From Pelodera strongyloides (Eukaryota; Nematoda; Chromadorea; Rhabditida; Rhabditidae): a stretch of DNA of 64,000 nt. The translations under genes and the position numbers were made by a program. The stretch covers positions 62,001 through 126,000 of the forward strand of contig JAANDG010000030.1 in assembly GCA_036852015.1 (NCBI GenBank), given 5' to 3'. Each line of letters opens with the position of its first letter. Positions within the stretch are counted from its first letter, which is position 1. Under the pieces are notes generated by a model that worked only from the letters and a program-made list of their open reading frames with translations, was not told the origin of the DNA and searched no databases. Below are positions 15,850 to 63,986 of the stretch, piece by piece.

Positions 15850-15923
15850 CTAAGCGGCTGCCGCTTTCTTTGCTGCGTATCCATCGTACGCTATCGATGC
15901 AGGCTTCGGTCCTATTGCACTAC
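15850..15923 (-). CDS. Secreted repeat protein, last exon
   Basis: Encodes 'GSAIGPKPASIAYDGYAAKK' plus AAAA and TAG. Ala/Lys-rich and free of the YG repeat. Phase 1 in, matching exon 14. Confidence 0.8.
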
Positions 15924-16190
15924 CTGAATAGTTTAATTTCTGTAGGTTGTAGGTTATAGCTTGTAGTTTACACTTTTTGTAGTTTGCACTTCACTGCTAT
16001 TTCTATTATTTATAGTTTATAGTGTTATATTCAGAAATATACAATAGACGTACCCGTGTGCCTGGCGCCTATTTTGTCAGTTGTCGAGCTGTAGCCGTTT
16101 ATTCCTAGGAAAACTTATTTTGTAAAATTTGCAATGATGTCCATCTCTCTCTCTCTCGCTAGCTCTCTCTCACTCTCTCTAGCTATCTGG

Positions 16191-16241
<51 letters not shown>

Positions 16242-19200
16242 GCTATCTGGCTCTCCCTCCTCCCTCTAGCTATCTGGCTCTCCCTCCCTCTCTTACTAAA
16301 GTTTCAAACCTACCGTCACTAACACTCTTCCGACTCTTCTTCTTCGTTCCATATCCACCCTGTTGTCCGCCAAATGTGATGTCGAAATCGATCGATACCT
16401 ATATATTGATCAATCGATAAAATGCATTTTTTGATACTCCTTAACTATAAACTACAAAAAATGGGCCGCAAACAACAAAGCACATGTTGTTCACGTGGAT
16501 TTACGCCATGCTTTCGGAACCAATATATTACGAACTGGCAAAGACAGCATTTCAAGCATTTAAACTCAATCGAATCAAACGAATATAATAGTAATAATCA
16601 GGTCCCACGGGTTGAAGGAAATAACAATAAGATAAGCAAACGTTACCTCTTGTCCATTTGTACCGTAGCCTTGTTGTTCACCGTAACCGGAAGTTGCTCC
16701 ACCATTCGTTGTGCCATATCCTGCGTATTCATTAGTTGTGCCTGATCCTGATGTACCATAGGTTGAATATGCTCCAGTGTCTGAAGTACCGTAACCGGAG
16801 TATGCTCCACTATCTGTACCACTGGAGGTTCCGTATGTCGTCTGACCCTGACCATATGTAGAGGCGGGGTATCCAGATTGATCGGTAGCGCCGCTGAAAT
16901 AGTGCAGCTTAGTTTTTCATTACAGGTAAAACATCTTTAGAAGCTATACACTCTACATTAGCTAAATCCTAATTGTAAGAACTGGTGTGATTTTCCAAGC
17001 TGATTCGTACAATGCATGTGCGCTTATGTAAATACCCTACAATTTAACAAATCAGATCGAAAATGGAAAATGAAGTAATTTACTGGTAACCGTATAACCT
17101 TACCTATATCCCGAACCCGATCCGTAACTACCGTAACTTGTTGCAGCACTTTGTCCGTCGGCTGTTCCGCCTGCTGCAGTACCGTAGCCATATCCTTGAT
17201 CCGTTGCTCCACCATACGTTGTTGTACCGTATGATTGACCTGCTCCGCTACCATACGTTTGTGCATCCGATGTTCCGTAAGCAGACTGATCTGTTCCGGT
17301 ACCATAAGCAGATTGGTCGGTACCATAACTACTGTAAGTTCCCTGATCTGATGTTGCACCGTAATTTGTTCCCACTGCTTGAGCCGTACCGTAACCTGTG
17401 CTAGTTGCAGCCGCGGTATCGGTGCCACTGTAATCAACAGCCGCTCCACCGTTATTATAGCTGCCATACGTTTGCTGTCCGTAGCTTGTAGCCGGCTGAC
17501 CATAGTCTGTGCTTTGTTGTCCGTTGTTTATATTTGGTTGTCCGTAGTCTGTACTTTGTTGCCCATAGTTTGTAGCCTGTTGTCCATAGTTTGTAGCCTG
17601 TTGTCCGTAGTCTGTCCCTCCACTACCCGGACCATAAGCCGTTGTCTGTCCGTACGTGGTGTCTCCAGTGGTGTCTCCTTGTCCACCGTAGTTTGTAGTT
17701 TGCTGTTGTGACGTACCGTAGCCGTTGTAATCTCCTAAAGTACAGTATGTACATTAAAAAAGAAGTAATGTTAAGGGATCCTTAAATTTTTAAAGCTATA
17801 TGACACGTGGTTTGGAAACGCACACTGGAATTCTGCAGTTCCATGTGTTATACTATGTTAATTGGGTTCCATTTGCATACAAGATACATGGAAATGTAGG
17901 GGCGGATCAGAAACCACGCACCATACCACTTTAAATTCTAAAAATGAGTCAAATTTGTTCATTCGCACCCTTCTCTTCTTGGGTGTCATCGGCAGTTGAA
18001 CCAGCATTTGAAGAATCTAGTAAATAATTAATATTATAGAAATGCTATGTTGACGGCTTCTCGGATTGGTGCTTGGATAACGAACAAAAGTTTCAAGTTG
18101 GCCTTACGTTACATACAAACCTATCTATGTAACATATCTATCGATGATCAATACTCATATTCATGGGGTTTCCAAGTATCCCACAAATTCGATGTGAGTC
18201 TGTCAATGCTACCGTATTTCTGCACGAAGTTTGCAAAAAAATATTCTCGTGTAGTTCCAAAATACTGTAAATTTGCACCATACTTGGAAACCCCATTACT
18301 GAAAATCCTCACATTTAATGTTTTTACATAGAAAGATAAAAATTAAGCAGTGTGTGCGTTCAATATTTTTTCTGTTAATTTAAAATGAATTCAAGCACCA
18401 CCTCCTGTGTATTCCGGCTGTTGAGAATTATAGTCTGTAGTTTGTCCGTAGCTCGAATAACTTCCCGATGCTTGCTGTCCTTGCTCTACTCCTGCATTGG
18501 AATAGCCCGCAGTATCAGCGGTTCCGTCGGTAGTTCCGTAATTTCCGTAATTTGTAGTCTGTTGTTCGTAGTTTGTAGCCTGTTGTTGTCCTGTGTCTGT
18601 AGTTTGATAGGACCCATAGCTCTGTCCGGCTCCTTGGCTATAGGTATCGGCTGTTCCTTGATTTCCGTAGGCACCCTGGGTACCGTACCCAGTATTTGAT
18701 ACAGTATTTGAAGCACCGTAAGACTGCCCGCTTCCTGTGCCGTAGGCTTGACCTCGATTACCGTAGTTTTCTGCTTTAGTCATTGACTGAGCACCATAAG
18801 AGTGTCCCTGTGCTCCGCTGCTCATTCCCGACATCTCACCTCCAGAATACGTCCCTTGGTTACCGTAATCTGTTGCAGTAGATTGTGTACCGTAAGATCC
18901 ACCTTGGGTACTGTAATCAGTGCCCGCTGAGTGGCTACCGTAACTAGCGGTTTGGCCACCGTATTCTGTTCCAGGCACTTGGGCACCCTGAGAAGCGCCT
19001 TGGTTACTGTAATCAGTGCCGGCTGATTGGCTACCGTAACTAGCGGTTTGGCCACCGTATTCTGTTCCAGACACTTGGGCACCCTGAGAAGCGCCTTGAT
19101 TACCGTAGTCGGACCCAGTACCCAAAGAACTGTATGATGTTGCTTGACCACCGTAGGCTTGCCCCTGGCCGGTATAATCGGTTCCTGATTGTGCGCCATA

Positions 19201-22200
19201 TTGACTTCCACCCGTAGAGTAGTCTCCGCCAGTAGAAGCACCGTAATTAGCACTTTGGCTACCGTAGTCAGTTCCAGATGACTGGGCACCACCGTAATGA
19301 CTACTTTGGTCAGTTGCTCCCGTTGCTCCTCCTCCATAGTTTGTAGTCTGTCCACCATAGTTTGTAGTTTGTCCTCCGTAGTTTGCAGCCTGAGCAGAAC
19401 CAGCTGAAGTAGATTGATAGGACTGTCCACCTTGAGAACCATAACCACCGCTAACATATTCTTGACCACCGGTATTCGATCCTGCTTGACTACCGTAGTT
19501 TTCAGCCGTTGAGGCTCCCTGGCCGGAATAACTGCTGTAAGTTGCTGGTGCGGAAGAAGAGTAGCCATTTCCGTAGTTGCTTCCGGATGAGGGATAAGAT
19601 GTAGCGCTACCGTACTGTGACGCTGCACCACCGCTACCGTACTGTGACACTGCACCACCGCTACCGTACTGTGACACTGCACCACCGCTACCGGTAGCGC
19701 TACCGTACTGTGATACTGCACCACCGCTACCGTACTGTGACACTGCACCACCGCTACCGTACTGTGACGCTGCACCACCGCTACCGTATCCTTGCTGTGA
19801 CGCGCCACCATAGCTGGAGTAGGTTTGTGAGCCTGAAAATAAGGTCGGGCGTAAATACATATTACATATCGAGCAATTTGTCATCTGGAACGACCTACGC
19901 AGAATAAGTCAGTATTCAACTAGTATAAAGGAGCACGCACTTGAAGCGTGAAATATTTTTTTTGTTTATTATAATGTAAGTACTTAGATGCACATATAGT
20001 AATGCAATCCCACGATACGACCCGCTAATACATCGATATTGACTTTTTTGTTCTTCGAATACTTGCACAATATGCGTCACAAAATAGTCTACGCATAATA
20101 CATAAATAATGTACCATGATTCCTTACTTGATTTTGAAGAACGATAAACATTATATGTGAATAATATGGAAAAACATAGCACCGCTCACCCTGCTGTCCC
20201 TGGTTCGAGTAACCCGAATAATCACCGTAGTTTGAGTTTCCGTAGTTTCCAGCAGTCTGCTTACCGGTCGTTAGGCCAGATGAACCTAAATAGGGACTTC
20301 GATGGGTGGTGTAGTGACTAGCGAAGTAGATTGTGAACAGATATGTCGCAGGTTCAATTCCTGCCCGATTTCAATGTTAAAAAATAACTACCGTAACTTC
20401 CGGAAATTGATTTGTCACTCGTTCCTCCCATAGCGCTAGAGTAAGGATCACCACCATAAAAGTTCGATGAAGAAGCCCCTAGAAACTTTTAACTTTATTC
20501 ATATTTGAGTAAACTTCGCGAGGACGCGGCACGTCGTGTAGAGGTGTGCGAAAAGTTAACACCACTTAAGAAGCTAGACCTCCTAAATGTGTCTAGCCTG
20601 CGTATGTTTTTTCTCTCTTGTTTGTATAAATATGTACTTTTTTTATGGAATGGAATAAAGAGTTAATAATAGTCAAAAGTGTGCGCTAAGTGGAAGTTCA
20701 CACACTTCGCACTACATTGGCGCTCTCTTCGCGCGCACAAGGCGGTGTTCGCCGCGGCGTGATGGTTCTACAATATTTTGTGCTCGACAATCCATGTCTG
20801 GTTAAAGCTTACCGCTGCTAGATCCATATCCAGATGCTGTAGCTCTGTCAATAGATGCTTGACCCTTTGGTGTATCAATGCTACCTAAACAATTATGAAC
20901 TAATTAATCGATAATTTCGAATAGCTGATGACTCACTTGAGCGTTTCATTTTTTTTTCGAGTAATAAACAACCTAGTCCCCCTACATTTACATCTTTCGG
21001 ATTTCATTTACTTTGTCTGCTTCTAAAACAAACTTTACCTCTCCTGAATTAGCACAATATCACATTTATAAAATTAAATAAAAGTTACCGTAGCTTCCGA
21101 ATGTGTTCTTGCCCCTTGTGCTCTTGGTTCCTTTGGTAATTGCCCCGCGGTAATTGCCTGCTTGCGCGTCCGGCACACCCATGTAGCCGCTAAAGTATTA
21201 ATATAATTTAAAAATGAAGATCCATTTTGGCCTCTAGTAAGTACTTTCGCGTTGTGAGCGCTGGGTCTTAGGGTTCCCTTTGGTTGTTCTTTATTTGTAT
21301 TGATTGTTAACCAATAAACCGTTATTATTATTTTGTGTCTTCAATTCAAGGCTAAGGAATCCGCTTATCCACGACTTCAAACTTCAAACAGCGAATTTGA
21401 TCTACACCGTCGTTATCCATGTGTTGTCCAATTAAGTAAACACATAATTACGAACGTACACGCGATCAAGAAATGCATCCTGAGCCATGAAAACAGCCCG
21501 CTCGCGCGCGGGTGGGATATTTGACTATAATATTGTATAAGAGGATGCGCTCATATGTTCGTTTCGCGCCGGCTTTTTTCTTCGCCAAATAACTCGCCTC
21601 GGAGGCCCTCTCCTGCAGGTTACCTCCAATTCTAAATCAATGGTACCTAACTAGAGTATCCCACTTATTAATACAGACTAGGAAGATAGGGGCCCTAAGC
21701 CTAAGCCTAAGTTAGTGCCGCATTCCATTTAACAACAAATTCAGAGTTCTTGGTTTTCTACAGTACTCAAAATAAATGTTTCCAATCCGAAAATAAAAAA
21801 AAATCGATAAATTGGAAATTCGTACCTTTGATATGGACTGCCGGCCCTGCCCATGGAGGATCCCGTTCCAACAGGGGTACGGAGATCCAGCGGACCTGAA
21901 CATTTTACATTTTTTTTTAAAAATAAAGATGAAGAAAACATTATTTGAAGATTTGTAAATGAAAAAAAGGAATACTGTAAAATAAGATAAGATGACCCAA
22001 GCAGAAAGGAAACCATAAGTAGAGGTAAAAGAAACTAAGTAAAAAAAACGAGCTCCAGGAACCAGGCGACTGGATAGCAAAATATTTATGAAGGACAAAT
22101 AATTGTATGTTTATGCATATTATTTTAGAGGTTATAAGGAATTCTGAGAAATGAAATTCAGCTCACCACCAATAGCCTTCGATCTCCCATTATGAAGTGA

Positions 22201-24047
22201 TGAGACCAATCTATTGAACTCGTCGGTCATACCTTTGGAATAGGCGTGCATTTGCTTAAGAAAAAGATATTTGAAGTTAAATTACAGAAGCTAAATATAA
22301 AATACGTAGCAGAAGTATGCTTAGGGCTTAGGCCACATCAAAAATAAAATCCCACTGCAGGACTCCAACCATTTAGCTAATAAACCAGTGTCAATTGCTT
22401 CGGAGTTTGGTGCACAGTGCAGGAAAATCCTAGCCTACTGAAAATTTTCTAAATTAGTCTTCTTTTCGATTCCCAGCTACCTACAGTCTCATGCAGCTAG
22501 AGGGACATTTCTACGGGGGGGGGGAGGGGCGTTTCATATGCAAATGAATATAATCAGACGACGCGCAGTTATTTGCGCACACTTCATGGGAACTCACCCT
22601 GCAACGCATATTTCAAAAACCGTATGTTATACCGCTTTATTTAATGCCAAGTATCAACCACCCACCTCCTCTGTTAGGTGTGCCTTATTGTTGCCCAGAA
22701 TAGTTCCCGGTGAGATTTTGGCGACGGCCGGGAATGCGACGAGCAAAGATCCCTGATTGTAGGACACTGGAATTCGCAGTGGATAATCTAAAAGGGAAGA
22801 CGATCCCATTCTTTGCATTGATCCTATGCTAATTGGACTACTTCATGGCCACCCACGGAGACCACCCACGAAGCGGTCATGGCCCGGCCCGTGGTCAATC
22901 AGTAAAGCGTGGGTGCATGCATGATCATTATTATAGTACGCTAACTAGGTAGATGACAAAGTTGTTAAAGACTAGATCGCGCTCATTGCTTGCAGTGCAA
23001 GAATTTCGCTCCATCGAATCAAATTGCGTGCGGATTTTTTACCGTTGCCGGATGGCGAAATCGGCCCGAACTCTTTATTTGATTTAGGAGCGAAATCGGA
23101 GTTTCCTCTGACAAGGGCAAAAGTCGGGCATTAGGTAACTGATGAAAACTCCGCCGATGCCGCACGAAAAACAATATAGTATGTTCTGTTCTGGCAGCCT
23201 GTGACAATGGCAGAAAAAAAACTGCGAAAGGAGTTCCCGAGATAACCTTTCTTATAAAATGTTGCCTTATATATTGTTTATTGTGTGGCATCGGCGGATT
23301 TTTCATTAGTTACGTAATGTCGCCCTTGTAAGCAATTTCGCTGTCCTGTTTCATATAAGCATAATTTACCTTTTCCCTTCTTAGCCAGCTCCTCTTTGTT
23401 TACAACATCTTCAGATAAATCGTTGTTCAGCTTCACAGCGTCCGTCGACTTTCCAGTTTTTGTCTAAATAAATAAAGCAGTTAAAGCGAAATACCGGCCG
23501 CTTTTTGAAACACATCGAGTACACCAGCATTCTTATGCAGCGTATGCATATGAACATAATTAGAATAAAAAATCGAGCTAAATTCGAGCAACTTTGCATA
23601 AATACAGGAATTCAGCTGTCCCCGATGCGTTTCAAAAACCGGCCGGTCTTTCGCTTTAAGTTTTTCAACACCGGAGTTTTTCTGCAAGTACATACTCTTA
23701 AAAAAAATATTTTTTTCGACATCCAGATTCATTTTACGCAAAAATACGTCACGAGTCGATGTATTGGTCGCAGAAAATCGATAAAATTGAGAGATATGAT
23801 CAACCTATCAACCTAAACAATCGAGACAAACCGTTTTCTTCGGCTTCTTTTTCTTTGTAGGGCTTCGATGTCGCGCTTTCCCGGGCGTTTCTGTCTTTTG
23901 CAACTCGGCTACCGTAGTTGGAGCGGATGATGACGTTGATGATGATGATGACGTCACAACTGAGGATTCTGATTCCTCCCTTTTCTTCTTACTCTCTACC
24001 TCGACCACGCCGAGGATAAAGAGAAAAAGAAGGAAACGCAGGTTCAT
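15850..24047 (-). CDS. Secreted Gly/Ser/Tyr/Gln/Thr-rich repeat protein, 15 exons
   Basis: Exons in transcript order: 24047-23832, 23463-23370, 22787-22666, 22254-22167, 21895-21826, 21189-21089, 20884-20813, 20478-20392, 20285-20190, 19832-18402, 18016-17969, 17734-17104, 16893-16647, 16398-16314, 15923-15850. All fourteen junctions are phase-compatible, and the total of 3462 bases gives 1153 residues and a TAG. The start has a signal peptide (MNLRFLLFLFILGVVEVES), then a Lys/Ser-rich segment, a non-repetitive region (exons 2-7), a very long low-complexity region of 'SQYGSGG', 'NYGGQ' and 'TDYG' repeats, and a basic end 'TKKKSRKSVSD' to 'KKAAAA'. I recognise no family. Secretion, regular Tyr and lack of Cys in the repeats suggest an extracellular matrix, cuticle or eggshell protein that could be Tyr-crosslinked; this is inference. 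CTTCCAG one base before the ATG suggests trans-splicing. Confidence 0.85.
16141..16290 (+). repeat. CT microsatellite
   Basis: About 150 bases of CT repeat interrupted by 'agctatctggctctccct', in the last intron of the secreted repeat protein gene. The internal frame of Ser/Leu codons is not a gene. Confidence 0.85.
16314..16398 (-). CDS. Secreted repeat protein, exon 14
   Basis: Encodes 'VSIDFDITFGGQQGGYGTKK' and a basic run KSRKSVSD. Phase 0 in, phase 1 out at ACG|GTAGGT. Confidence 0.78.
16647..16893 (-). CDS. Secreted repeat protein, exon 13
   Basis: Repeats of the type 'GYGTSDTGAYSTYGTSGSG' ending 'EQQGYGTNGQE'. Acceptor TATTTCAG, phase 2 in, phase 0 out at GAG|GTAACG. Confidence 0.83.
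17104..17734 (-). CDS. Secreted repeat protein, exon 12
   Basis: 210 codons of 'QQATNYGQQATNYG' and 'TDQSAYGTG' type repeats. Phase 1 in, phase 2 out at TATAG|GTAAGG; reading past that donor meets TAA at once. Confidence 0.85.
17791..17937. repeat. Family E MITE-like element (degraded)
   Basis: Starts 'taaagctatatgacacgtgg' and ends 'cacgcaccataccacttta', inverted and related to 36166. It lies in the intron between exons 11 and 12 of the secreted repeat protein gene. Confidence 0.55.
17969..18016 (-). CDS. Secreted repeat protein, small acidic exon 11
   Basis: Encodes 'DSSNAGSTADDTQEEK', an acidic break between repeat blocks. Phase 1 in and out; the donor G|GTGCGA is weak. Confidence 0.68.
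18162..18297. repeat. MITE-like element, family C
   Basis: Ends 'atggggtttccaag' and 'cttggaaaccccat', like 1619 and 4143, within the intron between exons 10 and 11 of the secreted repeat protein gene. Confidence 0.7.
18402..19832 (-). CDS. Secreted repeat protein, giant repeat exon 10
   Basis: Encodes 477 residues of low-complexity repeat. The 5' part has a 27-bp array ('GGAVSQYGS' in protein); further on are 'TNYGGQ' and a duplicated 111-bp block ('TEYGGQTASYGSQSAGTDYS'). The donor GAG|GTGGTG is weak; if unused, the frame stops at TGA (18391-18393) after 'PEYTGGGA', giving a shorter protein. Phase 1 in and out. Confidence 0.85.
19609..19795 (-). repeat. 27-bp tandem array inside coding exon
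   Basis: Copies of 'ccaccgctaccgtactgtga' with 'cactg' or 'cgctg' between, encoding GGAVSQYGS or GGAASQYGS. One unit carries an in-frame 'accggtagcg' insertion. Likely length-polymorphic. Confidence 0.85.
20190..20285 (-). CDS. Secreted repeat protein, exon 9
   Basis: Encodes 'GSSGLTTGKQTAGNYGNSNY' then 'GDYSGYSNQGQQ', the transition into the repeat region. Phase 1 in and out. Confidence 0.83.
20297..20372 (+). repeat. tRNA-like element in intron
   Basis: A box-like 'tggtgtagtgactagcg' and a perfect T arm 'gcaggttcaattcctgc', but the acceptor arms do not pair well. Probably a SINE head or tRNA relic. Confidence 0.55.
20392..20478 (-). CDS. Secreted repeat protein, exon 8
   Basis: Encodes 'GASSSNFYGGDPYSSAMGGT' and SDKSISGSY. 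Phase 1 in and out. Confidence 0.8.
20813..20884 (-). CDS. Secreted repeat protein, exon 7
   Basis: Encodes 'GSIDTPKGQASIDRATASGY' then GSSS. Exons 6 to 11 all end in phase 1, so any of exons 7-11 could be skipped without a frameshift. Confidence 0.8.
21089..21189 (-). CDS. Secreted repeat protein, exon 6
   Basis: Encodes 'SGYMGVPDAQAGNYRGAITK' and a basic run. Phase 2 in, phase 1 out. Confidence 0.8.
21695..21712. repeat. Interstitial telomere-type repeat
   Basis: Three units of CCTAAG (TTAGGC complement), in an intron. Confidence 0.7.
21826..21895 (-). CDS. Secreted repeat protein, exon 5
   Basis: Encodes 'GPLDLRTPVGTGSSMGRAGS' and PYQ. Phase 1 in, phase 2 out at AAAG|GTACGA. Confidence 0.8.
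22167..22254 (-). CDS. Secreted repeat protein, exon 4
   Basis: Encodes 'QMHAYSKGMTDEFNRLVSSL' and HNGRSKAIG, probably helical and non-repetitive. Acceptor TTCTTAAG is atypical (AAG). Phase 0 in, phase 1 out. Confidence 0.77.
22530..22642. repeat. Partial family E MITE-like element
   Basis: The right end 'caaaaaccgtatgttataccgcttta' type is visible (quoted in part); the left end is not clear. Confidence 0.35.
22666..22787 (-). CDS. Secreted repeat protein, exon 3
   Basis: Encodes 'DYPLRIPVSYNQGSLLVAFP' and continues to NNKAHLTEE. The most hydrophobic non-repetitive part, so the best query for homologues. Phase 1 in, phase 0 out. Confidence 0.82.
23370..23463 (-). CDS. Secreted repeat protein, exon 2
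   Basis: Encodes 'TKTGKSTDAVKLNNDLSEDV' and VNKEELAKKGK, charged. Phase 0 in, phase 1 out at AAAAG|GTAAAT. Confidence 0.82.
23481..23659. repeat. MITE-like element, family B (well preserved)
   Basis: Starts TTAAAGCGAAATACCGGCCG and ends with the inverted CGGCCGGTCTTTCGCTTTAA. The interior has 'cattcttatgcagcgtatgc' and an AT-rich centre. It is the clearest reference copy of family B here. Confidence 0.85.
23832..24047 (-). CDS. Secreted repeat protein, exon 1 with signal peptide
   Basis: Starts MNLRFLLFLFILGVVEVES, a clear signal peptide with probable cleavage after VES. Then 'KKKREESESSVVTSSSSSTS' and a run of basic residues. The donor ACG|GTTTGT gives phase 0; reading through stops after seven codons. 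Confidence 0.85.
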
Positions 24048-24050: not shown

Positions 24051-24336
24051 GGAAGAGATATTGATCGATTCTCATTTCCTGATCCATTAATTGAAGTCGA
24101 TTATCGATTTATTTGAAGATACTACTGATGGATTGTTTATTGATTGATAAGGCGCACGAAAGTAAAGTCAGAAAAATTGTAACGCAAGGACACGTCTACA
24201 TTTGTAATTAGCCGGAGGAAATGATGACGCCGTTATAATTATCGATTAGAAATGTTTAGAAATGTTTATTAGACTCTTAGAAAGAGCAATTAGATTAGAT
24301 AATTATCAAACTTGAGCATAAAGAACAGTGACAATG

Positions 24337-24409
24337 AGAGGTGGCGGTAGCGCAGTGGTTAGCGCAGTGGACGCGCAATCAAAAAGCGCGGGTTCGATTC
24401 CCTGTTCGT
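24337..24409 (+). repeat. tRNA-like SINE head
   Basis: 'ggtagcgcagtggttagcgc' (A box) and 'gcgggttcgattccctg' (B box). Arms pair poorly. Upstream of the secreted-protein gene. Confidence 0.6.
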
Positions 24410-28331: not shown

Positions 28332-28474
28332 TTGTAAATTGTCACAATCGCAAAGATCTCTGACTCTCTCTCTCTCTCATTGTTTCCCACCGACACCGAC
28401 AGATTACAAATTTTTTACGCAAAGAAATGTTCATAACTAAACTAATATAGTTTGTCTTATCGCTCTCATTTTAG

Positions 28475-28795
28475 AATCTTATACTGATATTCAATGTACG
28501 TGCATTCCTGCTATTGATCGAACCCCGAAAATGTACCAAAACGAGGCCTTAGCTGCGGTATCTGGCTCTGGAACCCTACCCGGTACTCCTGGGAGTGAAG
28601 CTACTGCTGTGGCACCGGGAGCCTCAACTACCGCAGGAAGCCCCGGGAGCACAGTACAAACTACAGACTACGAGAGAAGTCCCGGTGGGAGCAGTGTAGA
28701 AACTACAGATTACCAGGGATACGAGATCCCCAACAGTCAGACGTCGACGCTATCAAGGAGCACGGCTCATAAGCAAGATAACTCCGATGAGCTAG
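28475..28795 (+). CDS. ten-1: ten-1 exon 1, long-form N-terminus
   Basis: ATG at 28531 begins '[20 protein letters not shown]', Gly/Ser/Thr-rich with '[10 protein letters not shown]' and '[10 protein letters not shown]' repeats. The frame is open back to the acceptor TCATTTTAG at 28474, so this is either a trans-spliced first exon or an internal exon entered in phase 1. Confidence 0.78.
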
Positions 28796-31700
28796 GTATG
28801 ACTTGAAATACAGTACTCTGACCTTTGGCACCTATTGAAACGCTAAATGGCCAGCCACGGGAAAAAATGTTATTCCTGAGCGAGGAACTTTAAAAGCCGA
28901 CTAGTAGTGACATGCGTTATGGGGTGCGGTGTCATGGTGACATATGGTCATGCATGGAATTGTCAAGAGTAAAGACAAAGTGTCATGATATTCATGACAA
29001 GCATTACTGCCAGTTCAAGTAATATTGATCTTGTAAATGCTCATCTTTATGCACTAAGTCAGCTATAATTTTTGAGTAAAGTCTCTAAAAACTAAATTAA
29101 TTTAGACTCGGCGCTACCCCTCTTCGCCAAAGACTGGACCGAAGCAGGACAGCCTTTTCAACAGAAGTACGTGTTAAGAATGAAGACGAAACAGCCGACA
29201 GCACCGTCTATTCCAGGTAGGACAAGAGTAGCACAGGTGTATTTCAGATCTATACACAAAAGCACAGGTCTATTGTATATTCTTATCTTATATCTTATAC
29301 GTATATCCATTTCACTCCTGCACTATATCTATATGCTCATATCTACAGAGGAGATTAAAATTATTATTTTTTCGACTTTTTTATCTTAATTTTTACCGCT
29401 TCACAACTGCTATCGATTGATTTTCTGTGATACCCATAAAAATAGTCCGAGGCAAGAAAGCAGCTGTAATAAACGTGCCCATTCGAAAGTTGCCTTTGGC
29501 TGTTTAATCACAATATAAATTGTGATCTTTTTACCGTTTTAAGTCGCATTGTTTTAAAATTTCTTATAGAACCTTGGAGAGAGTGCGTGCGAGAGCAAGA
29601 GAACAAGAGAGAGCGAGAGCGAGACAGCAAGAGAGCGAGAGAGAGAGAGTTTCTAATAACTAATTACAAGTGTTTTTTCTTGTGTAGGCCAGATTTCCCA
29701 TGTAAACGAAAAACAATAGAGTAGTGGCACTCCACACTACTCCTGGCAGCCGGTTAATTGGCCGCCACCCTTAATTGCTCTAGTAATTGCCGGTCGCGAA
29801 AGTTGATGACGAGTGGGCACCGGAATAGACGGATCCAAACTTTGTTCTTTACTATTTTTGATTTTGCTTGAAATTAATACTTTAAATTACTTTAATTAGT
29901 ATCTTACACACTTTTATTTGCTTCGTAGGATAGGACAGGGATTTGTAGTATCATATGTAGATTACTTCAAAGGGTAGGCACATTGAGAAAGATATTTGAA
30001 AATCTTTCGTTATCTTTATTGGAGGTAAACCTGAGTCTGAATGCTCGACAACGTGCCTACCCTTTGAAGTACTTATTACGCTGGACATCCCAAAATGGAG
30101 AGAAACAAGTTGCTGATATGTAGTTTAGACCATATACATAGACATATTGAATTTGATTAATATTATGCGTTACCGCCGATTTTTCTCCCTTTTCATTTTC
30201 TTTTATGAGTTCGATTTTTTTTTCACTTTTCTGCCGCAAAGCCTTGTAAAACCGAGCATTCGCCATCTGCGGCGACAAAAATCGCGCTGCGTCACGTCCA
30301 TCCTGGCCAGCGACGAAATTCGCGCCGCAGCCCGACAACAGTTGTCGCTGACTCACAGCTATTTGTCTCTTGCACGTTAGCCCAATAATATCGTTTTCGA
30401 GCATTTTACACTAAAAATTGCTTCAACACGATGTCTTTGCCTCTCAATTCTTTGCATACTCTAGCTCATTGAATTTGAATGAGTAATCAAATTTCCCAAT
30501 CTCTCTTTATTTTTTGAAGCAATAAAGAATATCCTTGAAGCGAAATATCAGCCGGTTTTTGAGACATATCGTGAATAACTGAATTCTTACGTATTTATGC
30601 TAATTTGCTCGAATTTAGCTCGAGTTTTCACTCCGATTTATGTTCATTTGCATAAGCTGCATAAGAATGCTGGTATACTCGGTGTTTCAAAAACGGGCCG
30701 GTGTTCACTTAAACAAGCTGACTTTTTCTACACATATGTTTTTTTTTTTGTGATGAATTCCAGTTAACTGAAGTGAGCTACTCCTAGCCGTCTGAATTAA
30801 TCAGTTTTAGACTGTAGTAAGACAAGATATAAATATTAGAATAAGCGGCAACTTTCGCGTCGTCACGAAACTTTATCAAATATTGAGTATTAAATACAGA
30901 AAGTCCGTGTTTTGTATATTCACTTCAATTTTTCACTGCTTATATCATTTATTGACTTACAAAACCTATACTTATTTCGAAATCCGATTTTAAATTATCG
31001 ATTGTTTTCAGAAGAAGAGAACGCACAGAATGAGACTCCGCCCCCTCCAGTTCAATCAATAGTCATTGAATCTCCTTCTACATCATCGGAGGAAATTTCC
31101 CGTACTCCGTCTAGTCCTTCCGCTTCCGCGTCGACTAATTCGAGTAGTTTAAGGTGGGTTATTTATTGATTTTTCAAAAGAAATTGATCGATTTTGGACT
31201 ATTCTTTCTTTGATTTTACGTGCAACATTTCAGTTTTATTTTCTAATTTCTGTCGAACTGAGCATGGGTAGCTTATTAAAATGCCTTAAAGGGACAGGCC
31301 CATCAAAGTAAACCTATATTTACGACGTATTCATAATGTGTATAGAGCATTTTTATTACAATATATACAAACCCAATTTCACCTACTTTCGCCCTCGAGG
31401 ACTTTTTCCGATGTGCTCATCATCATATGTATACCGTAAAACTGCAGAGATCGAAGCTGTCTACGCAAATTTATCAAGAAATTAAAATGCGAGCTAGATT
31501 TGCATATACACCTTGGAAGTCTGCAGCTTTATGGTATACATATGAGGATGAGCACATCGGAAAAAGTCCTCGAGGGCGAAAGTAGGTGAAATTTGGTTTG
31601 TATATATTGTAATAAAAATGCTTTATATATATATTATGAACGTTTCGTAAATATAGGTTTACTTTGATGGGCCTGTCCCTTTAACCTTGCAAGATTAAGC

Positions 31701-62300: not shown

Positions 62301-63986
62301 CTCGATTTTTTATAAAGGCATTCTGCGTAAGTGTGCGGTGAGTTCGACAAAACATTGTGAACATATATTTACGAGCAATATAAGACATATATGCAAAGGA
62401 GAAGAGTTTACTTTTTTTTGTTTGAAGCCGTGTGTGAACGCAACAAGGCCCATTCATAAAGATTTGCGCGCACAAAAACTTTTGCCTCTGGCGGGATTCG
62501 AACCCACCTTGAACATATCTAACTCTTGCTCCACAGTGGACCTGCGTTACCGTCGTCCAGTACTTCCACATAGGTCTTGGGTTTCGCTTACTGTTAGATT
62601 TATCCGGCATAGTACACGGATTACGTATCTACAGTAATCCATCTATTCACCTAATGAGTTTCTCCGTTTAGATTGACGATCCACAGGCATTACACGGCAT
62701 AATCGTACCATCGTCTGGGGCTCTGCCGTCTGGCGCACGACCCTCCGTGACGTCACAAATTCCGGTTAGAGTATGCAGTGGAAATGGTATTTTGGACAAA
62801 CGGACTGGGAAATGCTTGTGCACGAGTGGATTTACAGGAGAACAGTGCGAACAAGGTTTGTCTTTTTATCGATTTCTGATAAATCAAATAAGTCGCATGG
62901 GAGCACATAATCCTATTATATAAAGGAGAAGAGTTTGTCACGGGTTTGTTTTTATGTGCACAACGAAATCCCTTCATAAAGAAAAATCTTCCATCGAAAG
63001 AGCATACAAAATCTTTGTCTCTGGCGAGATTCGAACCCACAGCAGCGCACAACCTCTCGATCCACAGTCTAACGCTCTACCGGTTGAGCTATGCTAGCTT
63101 ATCATAAGGGTAACAATCTGCCCTTCAGAGAGCACCTTCAATGTCAAATTTGCATGGTACTTAGTCTAATGGACATCCAGGCTTATATCATACGTTTCGC
63201 CAATTATTTATGACTTTGTAGATGTGTGAATGTTTTAAAGCGAAATGCCAGCTCCTTTGGAAAATTTGCATATGATAAGCAAATCCTATGTATCCTATGC
63301 TAATTTTGCGCGATCGTCCACGGCTATCGCGCAAAATTAGCATAGGATACATAGGATTTGCTTATCATATGCAAATTTTCCAAAGGAGCTGGCATTTCGC
63401 TTTAAATAGGGTAACAATCGGCCGAAGGCCGATTCCTCCAGTTGGAGAAGAGCCCGTAGGGCTCTTCGAACGGCTAGTAGAACATAATTTGGATATTATA
63501 TCATGGAGGCACAGAATGGAATACACATAATATTACATGAAAAGATGAAAGTGCAGTTGTCTAGTACACGTTTCACCAACCAGGTATCATATAGTTTTAA
63601 GGCTCCCTCCTCACCCTTTTCTAAAATATGTTCAACTTCCCAGCGAGATACTCCTGTTTTCATAAGTTTTAACTTGGCCAATATTACAGTATCCTGCGTC
63701 CCTACATGTCTGAACGGTGTCTGCTCGTCTGGCGCCTGCGTCTGCGGCGACGGATGGAAAGGATCGGCATGCGATGAGGTAATTATTGTTTGGAGATTGA
63801 TTTCACAGTTCGGGCGGGATCCGAACCCTTGACCTTTCGCGTAGGAGGCTGGAGCTGTAACCACTCGGACACGTTCTCATTATTTTCAGAAAGAGTGCGC
63901 ATTCGGCTGTGAGACGCATGGACGTTGTGAGAAAAATGGAACTTGTCTGTGCGATCAAGGTTGGAACGGAGAGAATTGTCATATTG
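28475..63986 (+). CDS. ten-1: Teneurin (ten-1), 5' and EGF part, continues beyond window
   Basis: Teneurins are type II single-pass adhesion receptors that guide axons and organise basement membrane and synapses. Exons: 28475-28795 (ATG 28531), 29106-29216, 31012-31153, 34701-34795, 43798-43949, 44201-44264, 44469-44545, 44931-45018, 47633-47677, 49622-49670, 49903-49965, two uncertain microexons (51405-51450, 56833-56855), 58339-58446, 58780-58898, 59106-59278, 59874-59996, 60357-60520, 60700-60788, 61068-61177, 61504-61590, 61815-61964, 62142-62273, 62672-62855, 63690-63778, 63890-63986. All junctions are in phase. About 948 residues are encoded here: Pro/Ser-rich cytoplasmic part (1 to about 460), transmembrane segment (about 461-483), the teneurin '[17 protein letters not shown]' block, then seven EGF repeats. 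NHL, YD-repeat and C-terminal parts must lie beyond 64000. An alternative start exon at 48711 would give a short form, as known for C. elegans ten-1. Confidence 0.92.
29106..29216 (+). CDS. ten-1: ten-1 exon 2
   Basis: Encodes '[20 protein letters not shown]' and [17 protein letters not shown]. The 'P-L-x-DW-x-E-GQ' pattern recurs in exon 8. Phase 1 in and out. Confidence 0.8.
30534..30714. repeat. MITE-like element, family B
   Basis: 'gaagcgaaatatcagccggt' and 'acgggccggtgttcacttaa' are inverted ends, with the family interior 'taagaatgctggtatactcg'. In ten-1 intron 2. Confidence 0.75.
31012..31153 (+). CDS. ten-1: ten-1 exon 3, Pro/Ser-rich
   Basis: Encodes '[20 protein letters not shown]' and a Ser/Thr-rich run ending STNSSSL. 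Phase 1 in, phase 2 out at TTAAG|GTGGGT. Confidence 0.83.
31286..31683. repeat. Inverted-repeat element, family D1
   Basis: 397 bases with arms TTAAAGGGACAGGCCCATCA and complement. Almost identical to 33085-33481. Inner arms carry 'tcgccctcgaggactttttc' and its complement. Confidence 0.88.
33085..33481. repeat. Inverted-repeat element, family D1 (second copy)
   Basis: Same structure and nearly the same sequence as the copy at 31286, in the same orientation, 1.4 kb downstream within the same intron. Confidence 0.88.
34701..34795 (+). CDS. ten-1: ten-1 exon 4
   Basis: Encodes '[20 protein letters not shown]' and [11 protein letters not shown]. Acceptor GACCTTTAG, phase 2 in (matching exon 3), phase 1 out at CAAG|GTTGGT (matching exon 5). 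Confidence 0.8.
35629..35799. repeat. MITE-like palindrome, family A
   Basis: Near-identical to 12608-12770, with one arm longer by the block 'ggatacatg'. TTAAAGCG and CGCTTTAA ends. Confidence 0.85.
36166..36348. repeat. MITE-like element, family E
   Basis: TTAAAGCGGTATGTCACGTG at the left and CACGTGTCATATCGCTTTAA at the right. Confidence 0.75.
38184..38373. repeat. MITE-like element, family E (diverged)
   Basis: 'aaagcgttgtggtatgtggt' and 'accacctgtcatatggcttt' form inverted ends; the 'atacacatggtaattta' interior is AT-rich. Confidence 0.55.
39850..39922 (-). tRNA. tRNA-Ile (anticodon AAU)
   Basis: A complete cloverleaf: acceptor GCCGCCA pairs with TGGCGGC; D arm 'agctcagtcggttagagc'; anticodon loop CTAATAA with AAT at 34-36; T arm 'gcaggttcgacccctgc' perfectly paired. 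It lies antisense in a ten-1 intron, as is common for nematode tRNA genes. A functional gene is likely. Confidence 0.93.
40650..40720. repeat. Multi-hairpin cassette
   Basis: 'agccctacgggct' and 'atcggccttcggccgat' are compact stem-loops. About 70 bases recur almost unchanged in inverse orientation at 63409-63477. Confidence 0.75.
40848..41041 (+). repeat. tRNA-derived SINE (His-like head)
   Basis: Head: 'gctagcatggctcaacaggt', anticodon loop with GTG, and 'gtgggttcgaatcccgcc'. Body: 'tgtatgctctttcgatcgaa' to 'cctttatataataagat'. The same head and body recur on the minus strand at 62910-63102. Confidence 0.8.
41771..41839 (-). repeat. tRNA-like relic (Thr-like)
   Basis: Minus strand 'ttatagctaagtggttaaag' with a TGT anticodon position and an eroded B box 'agagttcgacact'. 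Not a functional tRNA. Confidence 0.45.
42256..42365. repeat. Perfect fold-back containing a tRNA B box
   Basis: About 50-base arms ('tttgattgcatgaacgaaaa' ... 'ggacgagtgggggtcgaacc') separated by only a few bases (acg). Each arm includes the T-arm motif GGTTCGACCCC. Confidence 0.85.
43798..43949 (+). CDS. ten-1: ten-1 exon 5, Pro-rich
   Basis: Encodes '[18 protein letters not shown]' and '[15 protein letters not shown]'. Such Pro-rich stretches in teneurin tails can bind SH3 proteins. Two acceptors (AATCAG at 43797, GTTTCAG at 43827) keep the same frame, so ten residues may be optional. Phase 0 out. Confidence 0.8.
44201..44264 (+). CDS. ten-1: ten-1 exon 6, acidic
   Basis: Encodes '[20 protein letters not shown]' and K. 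Phase 0 in, phase 1 out. Confidence 0.83.
44469..44545 (+). CDS. ten-1: ten-1 exon 7
   Basis: Encodes '[20 protein letters not shown]' and QQRRSQ. Phase 1 in, phase 0 out. Confidence 0.83.
44681..44870. repeat. MITE-like element, family B
   Basis: TTAAAGCGAAATAGCCGCCG at the left, CCCGGCATTTCGCTTTAA at the right, squeezed into the 385-base intron between ten-1 exons 7 and 8. Confidence 0.8.
44931..45018 (+). CDS. ten-1: ten-1 exon 8
   Basis: Encodes '[20 protein letters not shown]' and EGLYYIPTT. Resembles exon 2. Phase 0 in, phase 1 out. Confidence 0.85.
45447..45545 (+). repeat. CT microsatellite
   Basis: About 100 bases of CT with 'cgtctgtctgtctc' interruption. A GGGAAT repeat lies just upstream (45275-45313). 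Confidence 0.85.
46058..46206. repeat. MITE-like element, family C
   Basis: 'aatggggtttcaaagtatgc' and 'gatactttgaaacctctt' ends; shares 'accgtattttggaactac' with the family. Confidence 0.65.
46928..47091. repeat. MITE-like palindrome, family A2
   Basis: Shares 'ggaagcttcggacgggca' and 'cccaaagtaggtacaat' with 3870-4061. Confidence 0.7.
47411..47582. repeat. MITE-like element, family E
   Basis: TTAAAGCGGTATAACAACTG at left; CCAGCTGTTATACTGCTATA at right. 50 bases upstream of ten-1 exon 9. Confidence 0.7.
47633..47677 (+). CDS. ten-1: ten-1 exon 9 (small)
   Basis: Encodes '[15 protein letters not shown]'. Acceptor TTCGTTTAG, donor AAAAA|GTAAGC; phase 1 in and out. Confidence 0.75.
48711..48942 (+). 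CDS. ten-1: Alternative first exon of ten-1 (short form)
   Basis: ATG then 77 codons: '[20 protein letters not shown]', a Pro/Tyr/Asn-rich middle ('[14 protein letters not shown]') and '[15 protein letters not shown]'. It ends in phase 1 at CAG|GTAACG, which fits exon 10. Upstream it is open only in phase 2, which does not fit exon 9 (phase 1 out), so it is best read as a separate start rather than an internal exon. Confidence 0.72.
49622..49670 (+). CDS. ten-1: ten-1 exon 10 (shared)
   Basis: Encodes '[15 protein letters not shown]'. Phase 1 in accepts exon 9 (long form) or 48711 (short form); phase 2 out at AAAGA|GTTAGT. Confidence 0.75.
49903..49965 (+). CDS. ten-1: ten-1 exon 11
   Basis: Encodes '[20 protein letters not shown]' and F. 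Phase 2 in and out. It cannot join directly to 58339 because the junction codon would be TGA, so at least one exon lies between. Confidence 0.73.
51405..51450 (+). CDS. ten-1: Possible ten-1 microexon
   Basis: Good acceptor TTTACACTTTCCAG; open for '[15 protein letters not shown]'; donor ATT|GTGAGT. Phase 2 in, phase 0 out, which fits exon 11 and the candidate at 56833. Supported only by splice signals and frame. Confidence 0.35.
53887..54064. repeat. MITE-like element, family B
   Basis: 'taaagcgaaatcccgggttt' and 'accggcttgtatttcgcttt' ends with the family interior. Confidence 0.78.
54774..54930 (+). repeat. GA/CT microsatellite pair
   Basis: A GA tract followed by a CT tract, separated by about 25 bases of 'attccacagttatactatag' type DNA; the two tracts could fold back on each other. 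Confidence 0.8.
56291..56708. repeat. Inverted-repeat element, family D2-like
   Basis: 'ttaaaggaggaggctcacga' and its complement at the ends; the arms include 'atagtttccttttatcgaa' and 'ttcgataaaaggaaactat'. Confidence 0.8.
56833..56855 (+). CDS. ten-1: Possible ten-1 microexon
   Basis: TTTGATACAG acceptor; 'YEVKYEK' in phase 0, ending AC|GTAAGC in phase 2, which fits exon 58339 without creating a stop. A longer version to 56869 in another frame (phase 1 in) is also possible. Confidence 0.33.
58339..58446 (+). CDS. ten-1: ten-1 juxtamembrane cytoplasmic exon
   Basis: Encodes '[20 protein letters not shown]' and [15 protein letters not shown]. Phase 2 in and out. Preceded by a TTATTATT-rich stretch. 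Confidence 0.82.
58780..58898 (+). CDS. ten-1: ten-1 transmembrane exon
   Basis: Basic flank '[16 protein letters not shown]' then the membrane span '[20 protein letters not shown]'. Positive residues on the N side fit the type II topology of teneurins. Phase 2 in, phase 1 out. Confidence 0.9.
58920..58978 (+). repeat. 8-bp tandem repeat
   Basis: About seven copies of ATCATTAG with one variant (GTCATTAG), in the intron after the transmembrane exon. Confidence 0.85.
59106..59278 (+). CDS. ten-1: ten-1 ectodomain exon (post-membrane)
   Basis: Encodes '[20 protein letters not shown]' through '[10 protein letters not shown]'. Phase 1 in. The donor TGG|GTTTTC gives phase 0 and fits the next exon, though an alternative GT seven bases upstream has a better consensus but the wrong phase. 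Confidence 0.72.
59325..59395 (+). repeat. CT and CA microsatellite
   Basis: CT repeat then CACACACACA then CT again, in a ten-1 intron. Confidence 0.8.
59589..59700 (+). repeat. Direct repeat of about 55-60 bases, two copies
   Basis: Each copy runs 'taaatagtgtgccgcgcaa' to 'tggcgcac'. They have diverged by a short indel. Confidence 0.7.
59874..59996 (+). CDS. ten-1: ten-1 ectodomain exon
   Basis: Encodes '[20 protein letters not shown]' and '[18 protein letters not shown]'. The 'PPSHT' motif resembles the conserved block before the first EGF of other teneurins. The RRRR stretch resembles a furin-type site, but that is inference. Phase 0 in and out at GTG|GTACGG. Confidence 0.83.
60357..60520 (+). 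CDS. ten-1: ten-1 pre-EGF domain exon
   Basis: Encodes '[20 protein letters not shown]', matching the strand 'L-x-x-G-x-W-x-L-x-x-x-N' found in all teneurins just before EGF1. Phase 2 out. Confidence 0.92.
60700..60788 (+). CDS. ten-1: ten-1 EGF repeat 1
   Basis: Six cysteines: '[20 protein letters not shown]' and GYMGPACEE. One exon, one repeat. The acceptor TTTGAAG is unusual. Confidence 0.92.
61068..61177 (+). CDS. ten-1: ten-1 EGF repeat 2 (odd cysteine)
   Basis: '[20 protein letters not shown]' and GFKGKECDV: five cysteines, with Phe where the third would be. In vertebrate teneurins the unpaired cysteine of EGF2 forms an inter-chain disulfide. Begins EGF3 with HWCE. Confidence 0.92.
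61225..61338. repeat. Palindromic repeat, family G
   Basis: 'cggggaaatgttccctgggg' and 'cccagtggggaattgagtgg'; relatives at 7817 and 9267. Confidence 0.55.
61504..61590 (+). CDS. ten-1: ten-1 EGF repeat 3
   Basis: '[20 protein letters not shown]' and GDACEI; with the Cys from the previous exon it has six. Confidence 0.92.
61815..61964 (+). CDS. ten-1: ten-1 EGF repeat 4 and start of linker
   Basis: '[20 protein letters not shown]' and DGFRGVDCS, six cysteines. Then '[17 protein letters not shown]', the start of a long non-EGF insert. Confidence 0.92.
62142..62273 (+). CDS. ten-1: ten-1 linker exon between EGF4 and EGF5
   Basis: Forty-four residues, no Cys, rich in Thr, Arg, Gln and Asp ('[14 protein letters not shown]' at the end). 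Phase 0 both sides, so it can be skipped without a frameshift. Thr-rich, possibly O-glycosylated. Confidence 0.85.
62395..62590 (-). repeat. Diverged copy of tRNA-derived SINE
   Basis: 'aaaggagaagagttt' and 'ggcgggattcgaaccca' match the SINE at 40848 in reverse, with many changes. Confidence 0.6.
62672..62855 (+). CDS. ten-1: ten-1 linker end and EGF repeat 5 (four cysteines)
   Basis: '[20 protein letters not shown]' then '[20 protein letters not shown]' and TGEQCEQ. EGF5 has only four cysteines; the usual first and third are absent. Phase 1 out. Confidence 0.88.
62910..63102 (-). repeat. tRNA-derived SINE (His-like head)
   Basis: Reverse complement of 40848-41041 at about 90% by eye, including the body 'tttgtcacgggtttgttttt' and the head 'gtgggttcgaatctcgcc'. 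Confidence 0.8.
63234..63405. repeat. MITE-like palindrome, family A
   Basis: TTTTAAAGCGAAATGCCAGC and complement at the ends, centre 'cgatcgtccacggctatcg'. Directly followed by the multi-hairpin cassette. Confidence 0.85.
63409..63477. repeat. Multi-hairpin cassette (inverse of 40650)
   Basis: 'aatcggccgaaggccgatt' and 'agagcccgtagggctct' stem-loops. Differs from 40650-40720 by only a few bases. Confidence 0.75.
63690..63778 (+). CDS. ten-1: ten-1 EGF repeat 6
   Basis: '[20 protein letters not shown]' and WKGSACDE, six cysteines. Phase 1 in, phase 0 out. Confidence 0.92.
63797..63878 (-). repeat. tRNA-like relic in the intron between EGF6 and EGF7
   Basis: Minus strand 'gtgtccgagtggttacagct' (class II-type A box) and 'agggttcggatcccgcc' (B box). 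It fills most of the short intron. Confidence 0.6.
63890..63986 (+). CDS. ten-1: ten-1 EGF repeat 7 (last complete exon in window)
   Basis: '[20 protein letters not shown]' and [10 protein letters not shown], six cysteines. Ends in phase 1; EGF8 and the rest are beyond the window. Confidence 0.92.

What the first reader, a model, noticed from the sequence alone, without database searches (positions are those of the whole stretch)
15850..24047. Large secreted Gly/Ser/Tyr/Gln/Thr repeat protein with no recognised family
Fifteen phase-compatible exons give a signal peptide, a unique 250-residue head, about 800 residues of YG-centred repeats with one acidic spacer, and a basic tail. Regular Tyr without Cys suggests a dityrosine-crosslinked or silk-like extracellular material. 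The composition also resembles phase-separating low-complexity domains, yet the protein is predicted to be secreted.
Basis: partly seen in the sequence, partly recalled or inferred. Interest (0 to 1): 0.75.

Follow-up and report, generated by a model that had tools for sequence, protein, structure and literature searches.

The report
Secreted evenly-spaced-tyrosine nematode matrix protein
A nematode gene appears to make a large, floppy, secreted protein whose tyrosines are placed at near-regular intervals, a pattern kept in a relative from another nematode even though the sequence between the tyrosines no longer aligns, so it probably condenses and is then cross-linked into an extracellular material such as cuticle.

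Summary
The feature is real. Pfam finds nothing significant in the parts scanned. Three protein searches found one relative: an unnamed, apparently mis-fused Mesorhabditis spiculigera model (P0001) with the same 44-aa head block (70% identity) and EVxxDxDxxFxGQ tail around its own Tyr/Gly region: a small, unnamed nematode family. BLASTP aligns nothing between the two low-complexity regions, yet both have 12.1% Tyr, mean Tyr gap 8.25/8.12, no Cys and net negative charge, and Tyr is evenly spaced in both (0 of 5000 shuffles as even). In the window protein Gly is also evenly spaced, less strongly; in P0001 only Tyr clearly is. That is the 'uniform aromatic sticker' pattern of prion-like domains, here behind a signal peptide. 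Best reading: a disordered apical-matrix protein that condenses through tyrosines and is fixed by tyrosine oxidation; secretion, condensation and cross-linking are inferred. It fails tested features of epicuticlins, resilins and FET proteins.

The parts
23832..24047 (-). Exon 1: start codon, signal peptide (MNLRFLLFLFILGVVEVES, cut site by eye), Ser/Lys-rich N-terminus; ATG lies 1 base after a TTCCAG that could be a trans-splice acceptor
   Evidence: frame and donor; 12-residue Kyte-Doolittle mean peaks at 2.83 (residues 6-17) and is negative in the windows starting at residues 12-25; no homology support; trans-splicing inferred by eye
23370..23463 (-). Exon 2 (head)
   Evidence: frame, ATTTAG acceptor and GTAAAT donor; in-frame stop just upstream, so it needs an upstream exon
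22666..22787 (-). Exon 3 (head)
22167..22254 (-). Exon 4 (head)
21826..21895 (-). Exon 5 (head)
21089..21189 (-). Exon 6: conserved block GYMGVPDA..GNY.GAITKG
   Evidence: 70% identity over 44 aa (with exon 7) to P0001, E 6e-15; the only match of P0001's part from residue 519 on in the own genome at E <= 0.001
20813..20884 (-). Exon 7: end of the conserved block (GSYGSID.PK), junction with exon 6 mirrored in P0001; start of low complexity
20392..20478 (-). Exon 8 (phase 1-1), low complexity
20190..20285 (-). Exon 9 (phase 1-1), low complexity
18402..19832 (-). Exon 10: main YG-rich region (477 aa), includes near-identical 27-bp and 96-bp tandem units
   Evidence: 505-aa open frame; tandem repeats
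17969..18016 (-). Exon 11: acidic spacer DSSNAGSTADDTQEEKG with its split codons (phase 1-1, could be skipped in frame)
17104..17734 (-). Exon 12: YG-rich region continued
   Evidence: 217-aa open frame
16647..16893 (-). Exon 13: YG-rich region continued
   Evidence: 113-aa open frame
16314..16398 (-). Exon 14: conserved EV.ID.DI.FGGQ motif, then basic KKKSRKS
   Evidence: alignment of the last 75 residues to P0001, 0 of 2000 shuffles as high; BLASTP E 0.001 in a two-sequence comparison
16054..16104 (-). Exon 15 (phase 1-1), tail
   Evidence: alignment to P0001 beyond the EV motif not significant (120 of 2000 shuffles as high globally, 154 of 2000 locally)
15850..15923 (-). Exon 16: C-terminus YDGYAAKKAAAA and stop
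   Evidence: weak match to P0001's C-terminus (FDGYRKKATA; 3 of 2000 shuffles as high, but this stretch was picked after seeing the longer alignment)

Best explanation
It is the window's member of a small, unnamed nematode family of secreted, intrinsically disordered matrix proteins. The signal peptide sends it to the secretory path. The ~840-residue Gly/Ser/Thr/Gln/Ala spacer chain holds about one tyrosine every eight residues, evenly placed, and almost no hydrophobic or basic residue. After secretion the tyrosines act as weak stickers, so the protein concentrates into a fluid or gel at the cell surface; peroxidase/dual-oxidase chemistry, the system proposed to cross-link nematode cuticle tyrosines, then fixes it by di- or trityrosine bonds into an elastic layer. 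The conserved head block, the EVxxDxDxxFxGQ motif and the basic tail, the parts held at sequence level, would dock it to a partner, and the basic tail could pair with the acidic chain. Shown: frame, composition, Tyr spacing, two conserved blocks, relative in a second species, peroxidase genes in the genome. Inferred: secretion, disorder, condensation, cross-linking, site (cuticle or another apical matrix), docking.
For: Complete phase-compatible frame with a hydrophobic N-terminus. P0001 of M. spiculigera has the same order: head block (31 of 44 identical), Tyr/Gly region, EVxxDxDxxFxGQ, basic tail. In both, Tyr is 12.1%, mean gap 8.25 and 8.12, gap CV 0.46 and 0.50, as even in 0 of 5000 shuffles each that keep YG as a unit; removing two near-perfect repeat stretches from the window protein leaves CV 0.48, 0 of 5000. 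In P0001 Tyr is the only one of ten residues tested that is clearly even (Gly CV 0.98, 1855 of 2000 shuffles as even or evener; Glu, 15 residues, 152 of 2000). No Cys in either; low-complexity charges 5+/49- and 10+/43-, tails 10+/6- and 14+/7-. Literature: across prion-like homologues aromatic stickers are uniformly distributed (PMC10491635, passages); protein families with phase-separating properties are secreted into the C. elegans pharyngeal cuticle (PMC9629831, abstract and section 11); C. [quoted passage not shown] a secreted tick Gly-rich protein with periodic Arg and aromatics condenses and gels (PMC11794139, abstract). 90 heme-peroxidase exon matches on 11 contigs exist in this genome.
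Against: No transcript, proteome or localisation data. Exon 1, and so the signal peptide, has no homology support: P0001 is fused to an SLC12 gene model and lacks its own 5' end. In the window protein Tyr is not alone: Gly is evenly spaced too (CV 0.64, 0 of 2000 shuffles) and Ala mildly (CV 0.77, 46 of 2000), as repeat growth or the YG pairing would give. The N-terminus (SPTKKKKPKK) and both tails are Lys-rich and could be read as nuclear signals. Two species are a small sample. Tyr-driven condensation of FUS-type proteins leans on Arg partners (recalled), and this chain has one Arg; tick GRP also uses Arg. Disorder was judged from composition only.
Confidence: 0.55

Rival explanations
1. A nuclear or cytoplasmic prion-like scaffold (FUS/EWS/TAF15-like in physics), mis-assigned as secreted because exon 1 belongs to something else; the Lys-rich stretches act as nuclear signals.
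For: Uniform Tyr spacing and a Gly/Ser/Tyr/Gln composition; Lys-rich KKKKPKK and KKKSRKS, and in P0001 a KRKTKGRPRMR tail; exon 1 lacks homology support.
Against: Exon 2 opens just after an in-frame stop and needs an upstream exon; exon 1 is in frame and begins with a strongly hydrophobic N-terminus one base behind an acceptor-like AG. No RGG (0) and no Pfam RNA-binding domain in the parts scanned.
Confidence: 0.15
2. A resilin-like elastomer: a rubbery dityrosine network without prior condensation, with Gly/Ser/Gln spacers giving recoil.
For: No Cys or Trp, Gly 23.6%, one Tyr per about eight residues, ILVFMWC residues 2.4%; resilin is disordered and di-/trityrosine cross-linked (PMC7794388, passages).
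Against: Pro plus Gly is 24.6% here against about 45% given for resilin; no resilin repeat seen and no chitin-binding domain in the parts scanned. M. spiculigera has more Pro (6.6%).
Confidence: 0.2
3. A fast-evolving low-complexity secreted protein of no structural role (for example a mucus or gland product), with Tyr spacing a by-product of repeat growth.
For: Recent 27-bp and 96-bp tandem units; in the window protein Gly, and mildly Ala, are evenly spaced as well; low-complexity regions of the two species do not align by BLASTP; one relative only.
Against: In P0001 Tyr is even while Gly, Ser, Asn, Gln, Ala, Asp, Thr and Pro are not; the Tyr result survives removal of the window protein's near-perfect arrays; the head block and the tail motif are conserved.
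Confidence: 0.1

Closest known systems
P0001, unnamed protein of Mesorhabditis spiculigera (NCBI, partial)
   Same: Head block 31 of 44 identical, Tyr/Gly low-complexity middle without Cys, EVxxDxDxxFxGQ motif, basic tail
   Different: Low-complexity part not aligned by BLASTP, richer in Asn and Pro, poorer in Thr and Gln; its model is fused to an SLC12 transporter end (PF03522), whose pieces match other contigs here
Secreted disordered families of the C. elegans pharyngeal cuticle (IDPA, IDPB, IDPC, APPG; PMC9629831, abstract, sections 11 and 17, passages)
   Same: Signal peptide, low complexity, predicted phase separation, no homologues reported beyond nematodes
   Different: APPG and IDPB are Cys-rich, this has none; sequences of IDPA and IDPC were not at hand for comparison
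Epicuticlins (PMC9612446, PMC11529277)
   Same: Secreted, disordered, repeated Tyr
   Different: No 49-51-aa repeats; YGD once and GYR never in residues 261-1100; Ala 9.8% there against about 34.5% in EPIC-1/2
CUT-2 cuticlin (seen only as described in PMC9612446, PMC11304992 and PMC11529277)
   Same: Secreted low-complexity repeat protein without ZP domain; dityrosine formation studied (title of a cited paper)
   Different: 215 aa and 27% Ala; sequences not compared here
Resilin (PMC7794388, passages)
   Same: Disordered, Gly-rich, Tyr cross-link sites
   Different: No GGRPSDSYGAPGGGN repeats seen, no chitin-binding domain found, little Pro
FUS/EWS/TAF15 low-complexity domains
   Same: Gly/Ser/Tyr/Gln-rich (their composition recalled), uniform aromatic stickers
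   Different: Those are intracellular RNA-binding proteins (recalled); here a signal peptide, RGG 0, no RRM or zinc finger found; no FUS chain among the matches of exon 10 at E <= 1 in the PDB search

Membership tests
Family defined here with M. spiculigera P0001 | GYMGVPDA..GNY.GAITKG..FGSYGSID head block | tested here: met
   31/44 identical, E 6e-15; 0 of 2000 shuffles as high
Family defined here with M. spiculigera P0001 | EVxxDxDxxFxGQ motif and basic tail after the Tyr/Gly region | tested here: met
   0 of 2000 shuffles as high for the whole tail; the part beyond the motif alone is not significant, 120 of 2000
Family defined here with M. spiculigera P0001 | Signal peptide | not testable with these tools
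   P0001 lacks its own 5' end
Epicuticlin | Tandem repeats of about 49-51 aa carrying YGD and GYR motifs | tested here: not met
   YGD 1, GYR 0 in residues 261-1100; tandem arrays found in the coding part have periods of 9 to 96 bp, not about 150
Epicuticlin | Ala-rich (about 34.5% in EPIC-1/2, PMC11529277) | tested here: not met
   Ala 9.8% of the low-complexity part
Resilin | Chitin-binding (Rebers-Riddiford) domain | tested here: not met
   no Pfam match of that kind in residues 1-312, 1100-1170, exon 10 and exon 12; exons 11 and 13 not scanned
Resilin | GGRPSDSYGAPGGGN-type repeats, Pro/Gly-rich | tested here: not met
   Pro 1.1% and one Arg in 840 residues; repeat not seen in the translation
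FET proteins (FUS/EWS/TAF15) | RRM, RanBP2-type zinc finger, RGG boxes (recalled) | tested here: not met
   no such Pfam match in the parts scanned; RGG 0
Prion-like domain physics (not a family) | Aromatic stickers uniformly distributed along the chain | tested here: met
   CV 0.46 and 0.50, 0 of 5000 shuffles each; Gly also even in the window protein
APPG / IDPB | Cys-rich | tested here: not met
   no Cys in 1170 aa
IDPA / IDPC / CUT-2 | Family consensus sequence | not tested
   their sequences were not fetched
Dityrosine-cross-linked matrix protein | Tyr-Tyr bonds in the material | not testable with these tools
   needs protein chemistry

The most novel reading that the evidence does not exclude
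A nematode family in which selection holds not the sequence but the spacing of tyrosines in a secreted chain: the uniform sticker grammar known from intracellular prion-like domains is used outside the cell to make a condensate that is then locked by tyrosine oxidation, with two short conserved ends as the only sequence-bound parts.
Probability: 0.4. Interest if true: 0.65.

Novelty: new variant of a known kind. Interest (0 to 1): 0.45.

Why it matters
Secreted proteins with phase-separating properties are a recent theme in nematode cuticle work, and two of the described families are Cys-rich (PMC9629831). A Cys-free, Tyr-rich family with two conserved anchors and a measurable spacing rule would give a clean test of whether aromatic sticker spacing is under selection outside the cell, and whether condensation comes before oxidative cross-linking of a matrix. 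It could also serve as a template for Tyr-cross-linked materials.

Tried and rejected
Rejected: epicuticlin, resilin, FET and APPG/IDPB membership (features tested, not met). The PDB sequence search of residues 1-251 gave only two matches at E 0.09 and 0.12 and of exon 10 only two SPT5 entries at E 0.018: taken as chance or composition. Pfam matches of residues 1-312 at E 0.18 and 0.43 are far below the curated cut-offs. The SLC12 match of P0001 belongs, I think, to a fused neighbour model: SLC12 pieces match C131, C8 and C109 here, and P0001's first 518 residues match nothing in the window at E <= 1. GC content did not separate exons 2, 4, 7 and 8 from introns. Alignment of the tail beyond the EV motif is not significant. 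A structure prediction was not tried: by its description the tool takes proteins read letter for letter from the DNA or found by search; the spliced head is neither, and P0001 exceeds the length limit. Whether other YG-rich genes exist in this genome stays open because that search did not complete.
Full report
Observation. The 15 introns are 106-636 bases long. Ten of 15 junctions are phase 1 and eight of those ten split a Gly codon; exons 7, 8, 9, 10, 11 and 15 are symmetric 1-1 exons, so any of them could be skipped or duplicated in frame. Exon 1 begins one base after TTCCAG, as would suit a trans-spliced nematode gene (by eye), and codes a hydrophobic N-terminus (12-residue mean hydropathy up to 2.83). 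Exon 2 follows an in-frame stop, so it needs an upstream exon; exon 1 is the one at hand.

Residues 261-1100 are Gly 23.6, Ser 15.5, Thr 13.0, Tyr 12.1, Gln 11.2, Ala 9.8%, with 102 Tyr and 70 YG (2000 shuffles: mean 24, maximum 36). There is no Cys and no Trp in the protein. The open frame over exon 10 is 505 aa against 181 aa at most in 500 shuffles of that stretch. YG is written with seven different codon pairs (34, 14, 13, 4, 2, 2, 1), so the pattern is not merely recent DNA slippage, although recent arrays of 27 and 96 bp exist.

Relatives. Pfam has nothing significant for residues 1-312 and 1100-1170 or for exons 10 and 12 (exons 11 and 13 were not scanned). A search of 5.8 billion proteins with residues 70-300 returned one protein at E <= 0.01 among 2989 candidates: P0001, unnamed, Mesorhabditis spiculigera. 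A search for shorter relatives (residues 104-260) gave none of 250 candidates at E <= 10, and one from P0001's side gave only P0001 itself among 99. These searches need shared 5-residue words and limit length, so distant relatives may be missed. P0001 carries an SLC12 transporter end (PF03522, E 4e-79) fused to a Tyr/Gly protein from about residue 519. SLC12 pieces match contigs C131, C8 and C109 in this genome and not the window, so the fusion is probably a gene-model error. The Tyr/Gly part shares with the window gene a 44-residue head block (31 identical, E 6e-15) and an EVxxDxDxxFxGQ motif. The head alignment exceeds all 2000 shuffles (206 against a mean of 60.6), and so does the tail (72 against 23.8); the tail beyond the motif alone does not stand out (120 of 2000 shuffles as high; 154 of 2000 locally). 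At E <= 1 all 7 matches of the 215-aa head query in this genome lie in the window gene, so the head looks single-copy.

The main new result is about spacing. BLASTP at E <= 1 aligns nothing between the two proteins outside the two end blocks. Yet both low-complexity regions have 12.1% Tyr, mean Tyr gaps of 8.25 and 8.12, maximum gaps of 21 and 18 (token shuffles: mean maxima 37 and 36), and gap CVs of 0.46 and 0.50. In 5000 shuffles each that keep YG as a unit, none was as even. After removal of the 9-residue array and a 32-residue duplicate the window protein still has CV 0.48, 0 of 5000. A wider control (2000 plain shuffles per residue) tempers and sharpens this. In the window protein Gly is evenly spaced too (CV 0.64, 0 of 2000), Ala mildly (0.77, 46 of 2000), while Ser, Thr, Gln, Asn and Asp are not (0.90-1.37); with the arrays removed Gly (0.63, 0 of 2000), Ala (0.77, 90) and Thr (0.78, 66) remain on the even side. 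In P0001 Tyr (0.50, 0 of 2000) is the only clear case: Gly 0.98 (1855 of 2000), Ser, Thr, Gln, Ala, Asn, Asp and Pro 1.02-1.36, Glu 0.67 on 15 residues (152 of 2000). So even Tyr is what the two share; even Gly is not. Charge layout is shared too: 5+/49- and 10+/43- in the low-complexity parts, 10+/6- and 14+/7- in the tails.

Interpretation. [quoted passage not shown] The same grammar behind a signal peptide fits a secreted material. There is precedent: 48% of gene products secreted during the moult in the C. [quoted passage not shown] a tick saliva Gly-rich protein with periodic aromatic and Arg residues condenses and gels (PMC11794139, abstract). For fixation, C. [quoted passage not shown] 81 of 126 candidates scored). 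I therefore favour a condense-then-cross-link matrix protein, with the short conserved ends as docking parts. Secretion, disorder, condensation, cross-linking and site are inferred.

Against this: no expression data; exon 1 lacks homology support; Lys-rich stretches in both proteins allow a nuclear reading; the chain has one Arg in 840 residues, and Arg helps Tyr-driven condensation elsewhere; Gly evenness in the window protein fits repeat growth; two species only.

Membership. It fails tested defining features of epicuticlins (repeat length, GYR/YGD, Ala; PMC9612446 abstract, part 1 of its Results, section 11 and passages; PMC11529277 passages), resilin (repeat, Pro, chitin-binding domain; PMC7794388 passages), FET proteins (RRM, zinc finger, RGG; recalled) and the Cys-rich APPG/IDPB. 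IDPA, IDPC and CUT-2 were not compared by sequence. Eight text searches listed no paper that I recognised as describing this protein; the listings and the passages named above are all I saw, and capped lists were not read to the end.

Noticed in passing
window 63515-63829 (+): Teneurin-type EGF (PF23106, E 6e-6); a teneurin-like gene may run on the + strand, away from this gene.
   Followed up: partly
window 28441-28806 (+): 121-aa open frame with TTDYERSPGG / TTDYQGYEIP; no Pfam match to its 92-aa part. Perhaps an exon of a + strand neighbour.
   Followed up: partly
window 22531-22649 (intron 3): A stretch of roughly 75-120 bases with 40 further listed matches of 72-82% identity elsewhere in the genome (40 of 97 candidates scored): a dispersed repeat.
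   Followed up: no
window 23129-23319, 23481-23659, 18163-18296: Three inverted repeats (arms 50, 52, 27 nt; 85-88% complementary) in introns 2, 1 and 10 (a fourth, weaker pair lies upstream at 24235-24306), like small non-autonomous DNA transposons.
   Followed up: partly
window about 24340-24400 and 20300-20370: Stretches that look tRNA-derived by eye (GAATCGAACC.., GAATTGAACC..), not called by ARAGORN or at Rfam's gathering score; the second lies in intron 8.
   Followed up: no
window 18391-18402: A TGA follows three codons past the exon-10 donor, and two tandem GTG donors are possible: a short isoform without the tail or a one-Gly splice variant could be made.
   Followed up: no
P0001 residues 1235-1243: M. 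spiculigera tail has KTKGRPRMR, which resembles an AT-hook (recalled motif); the window protein lacks it.
   Followed up: no
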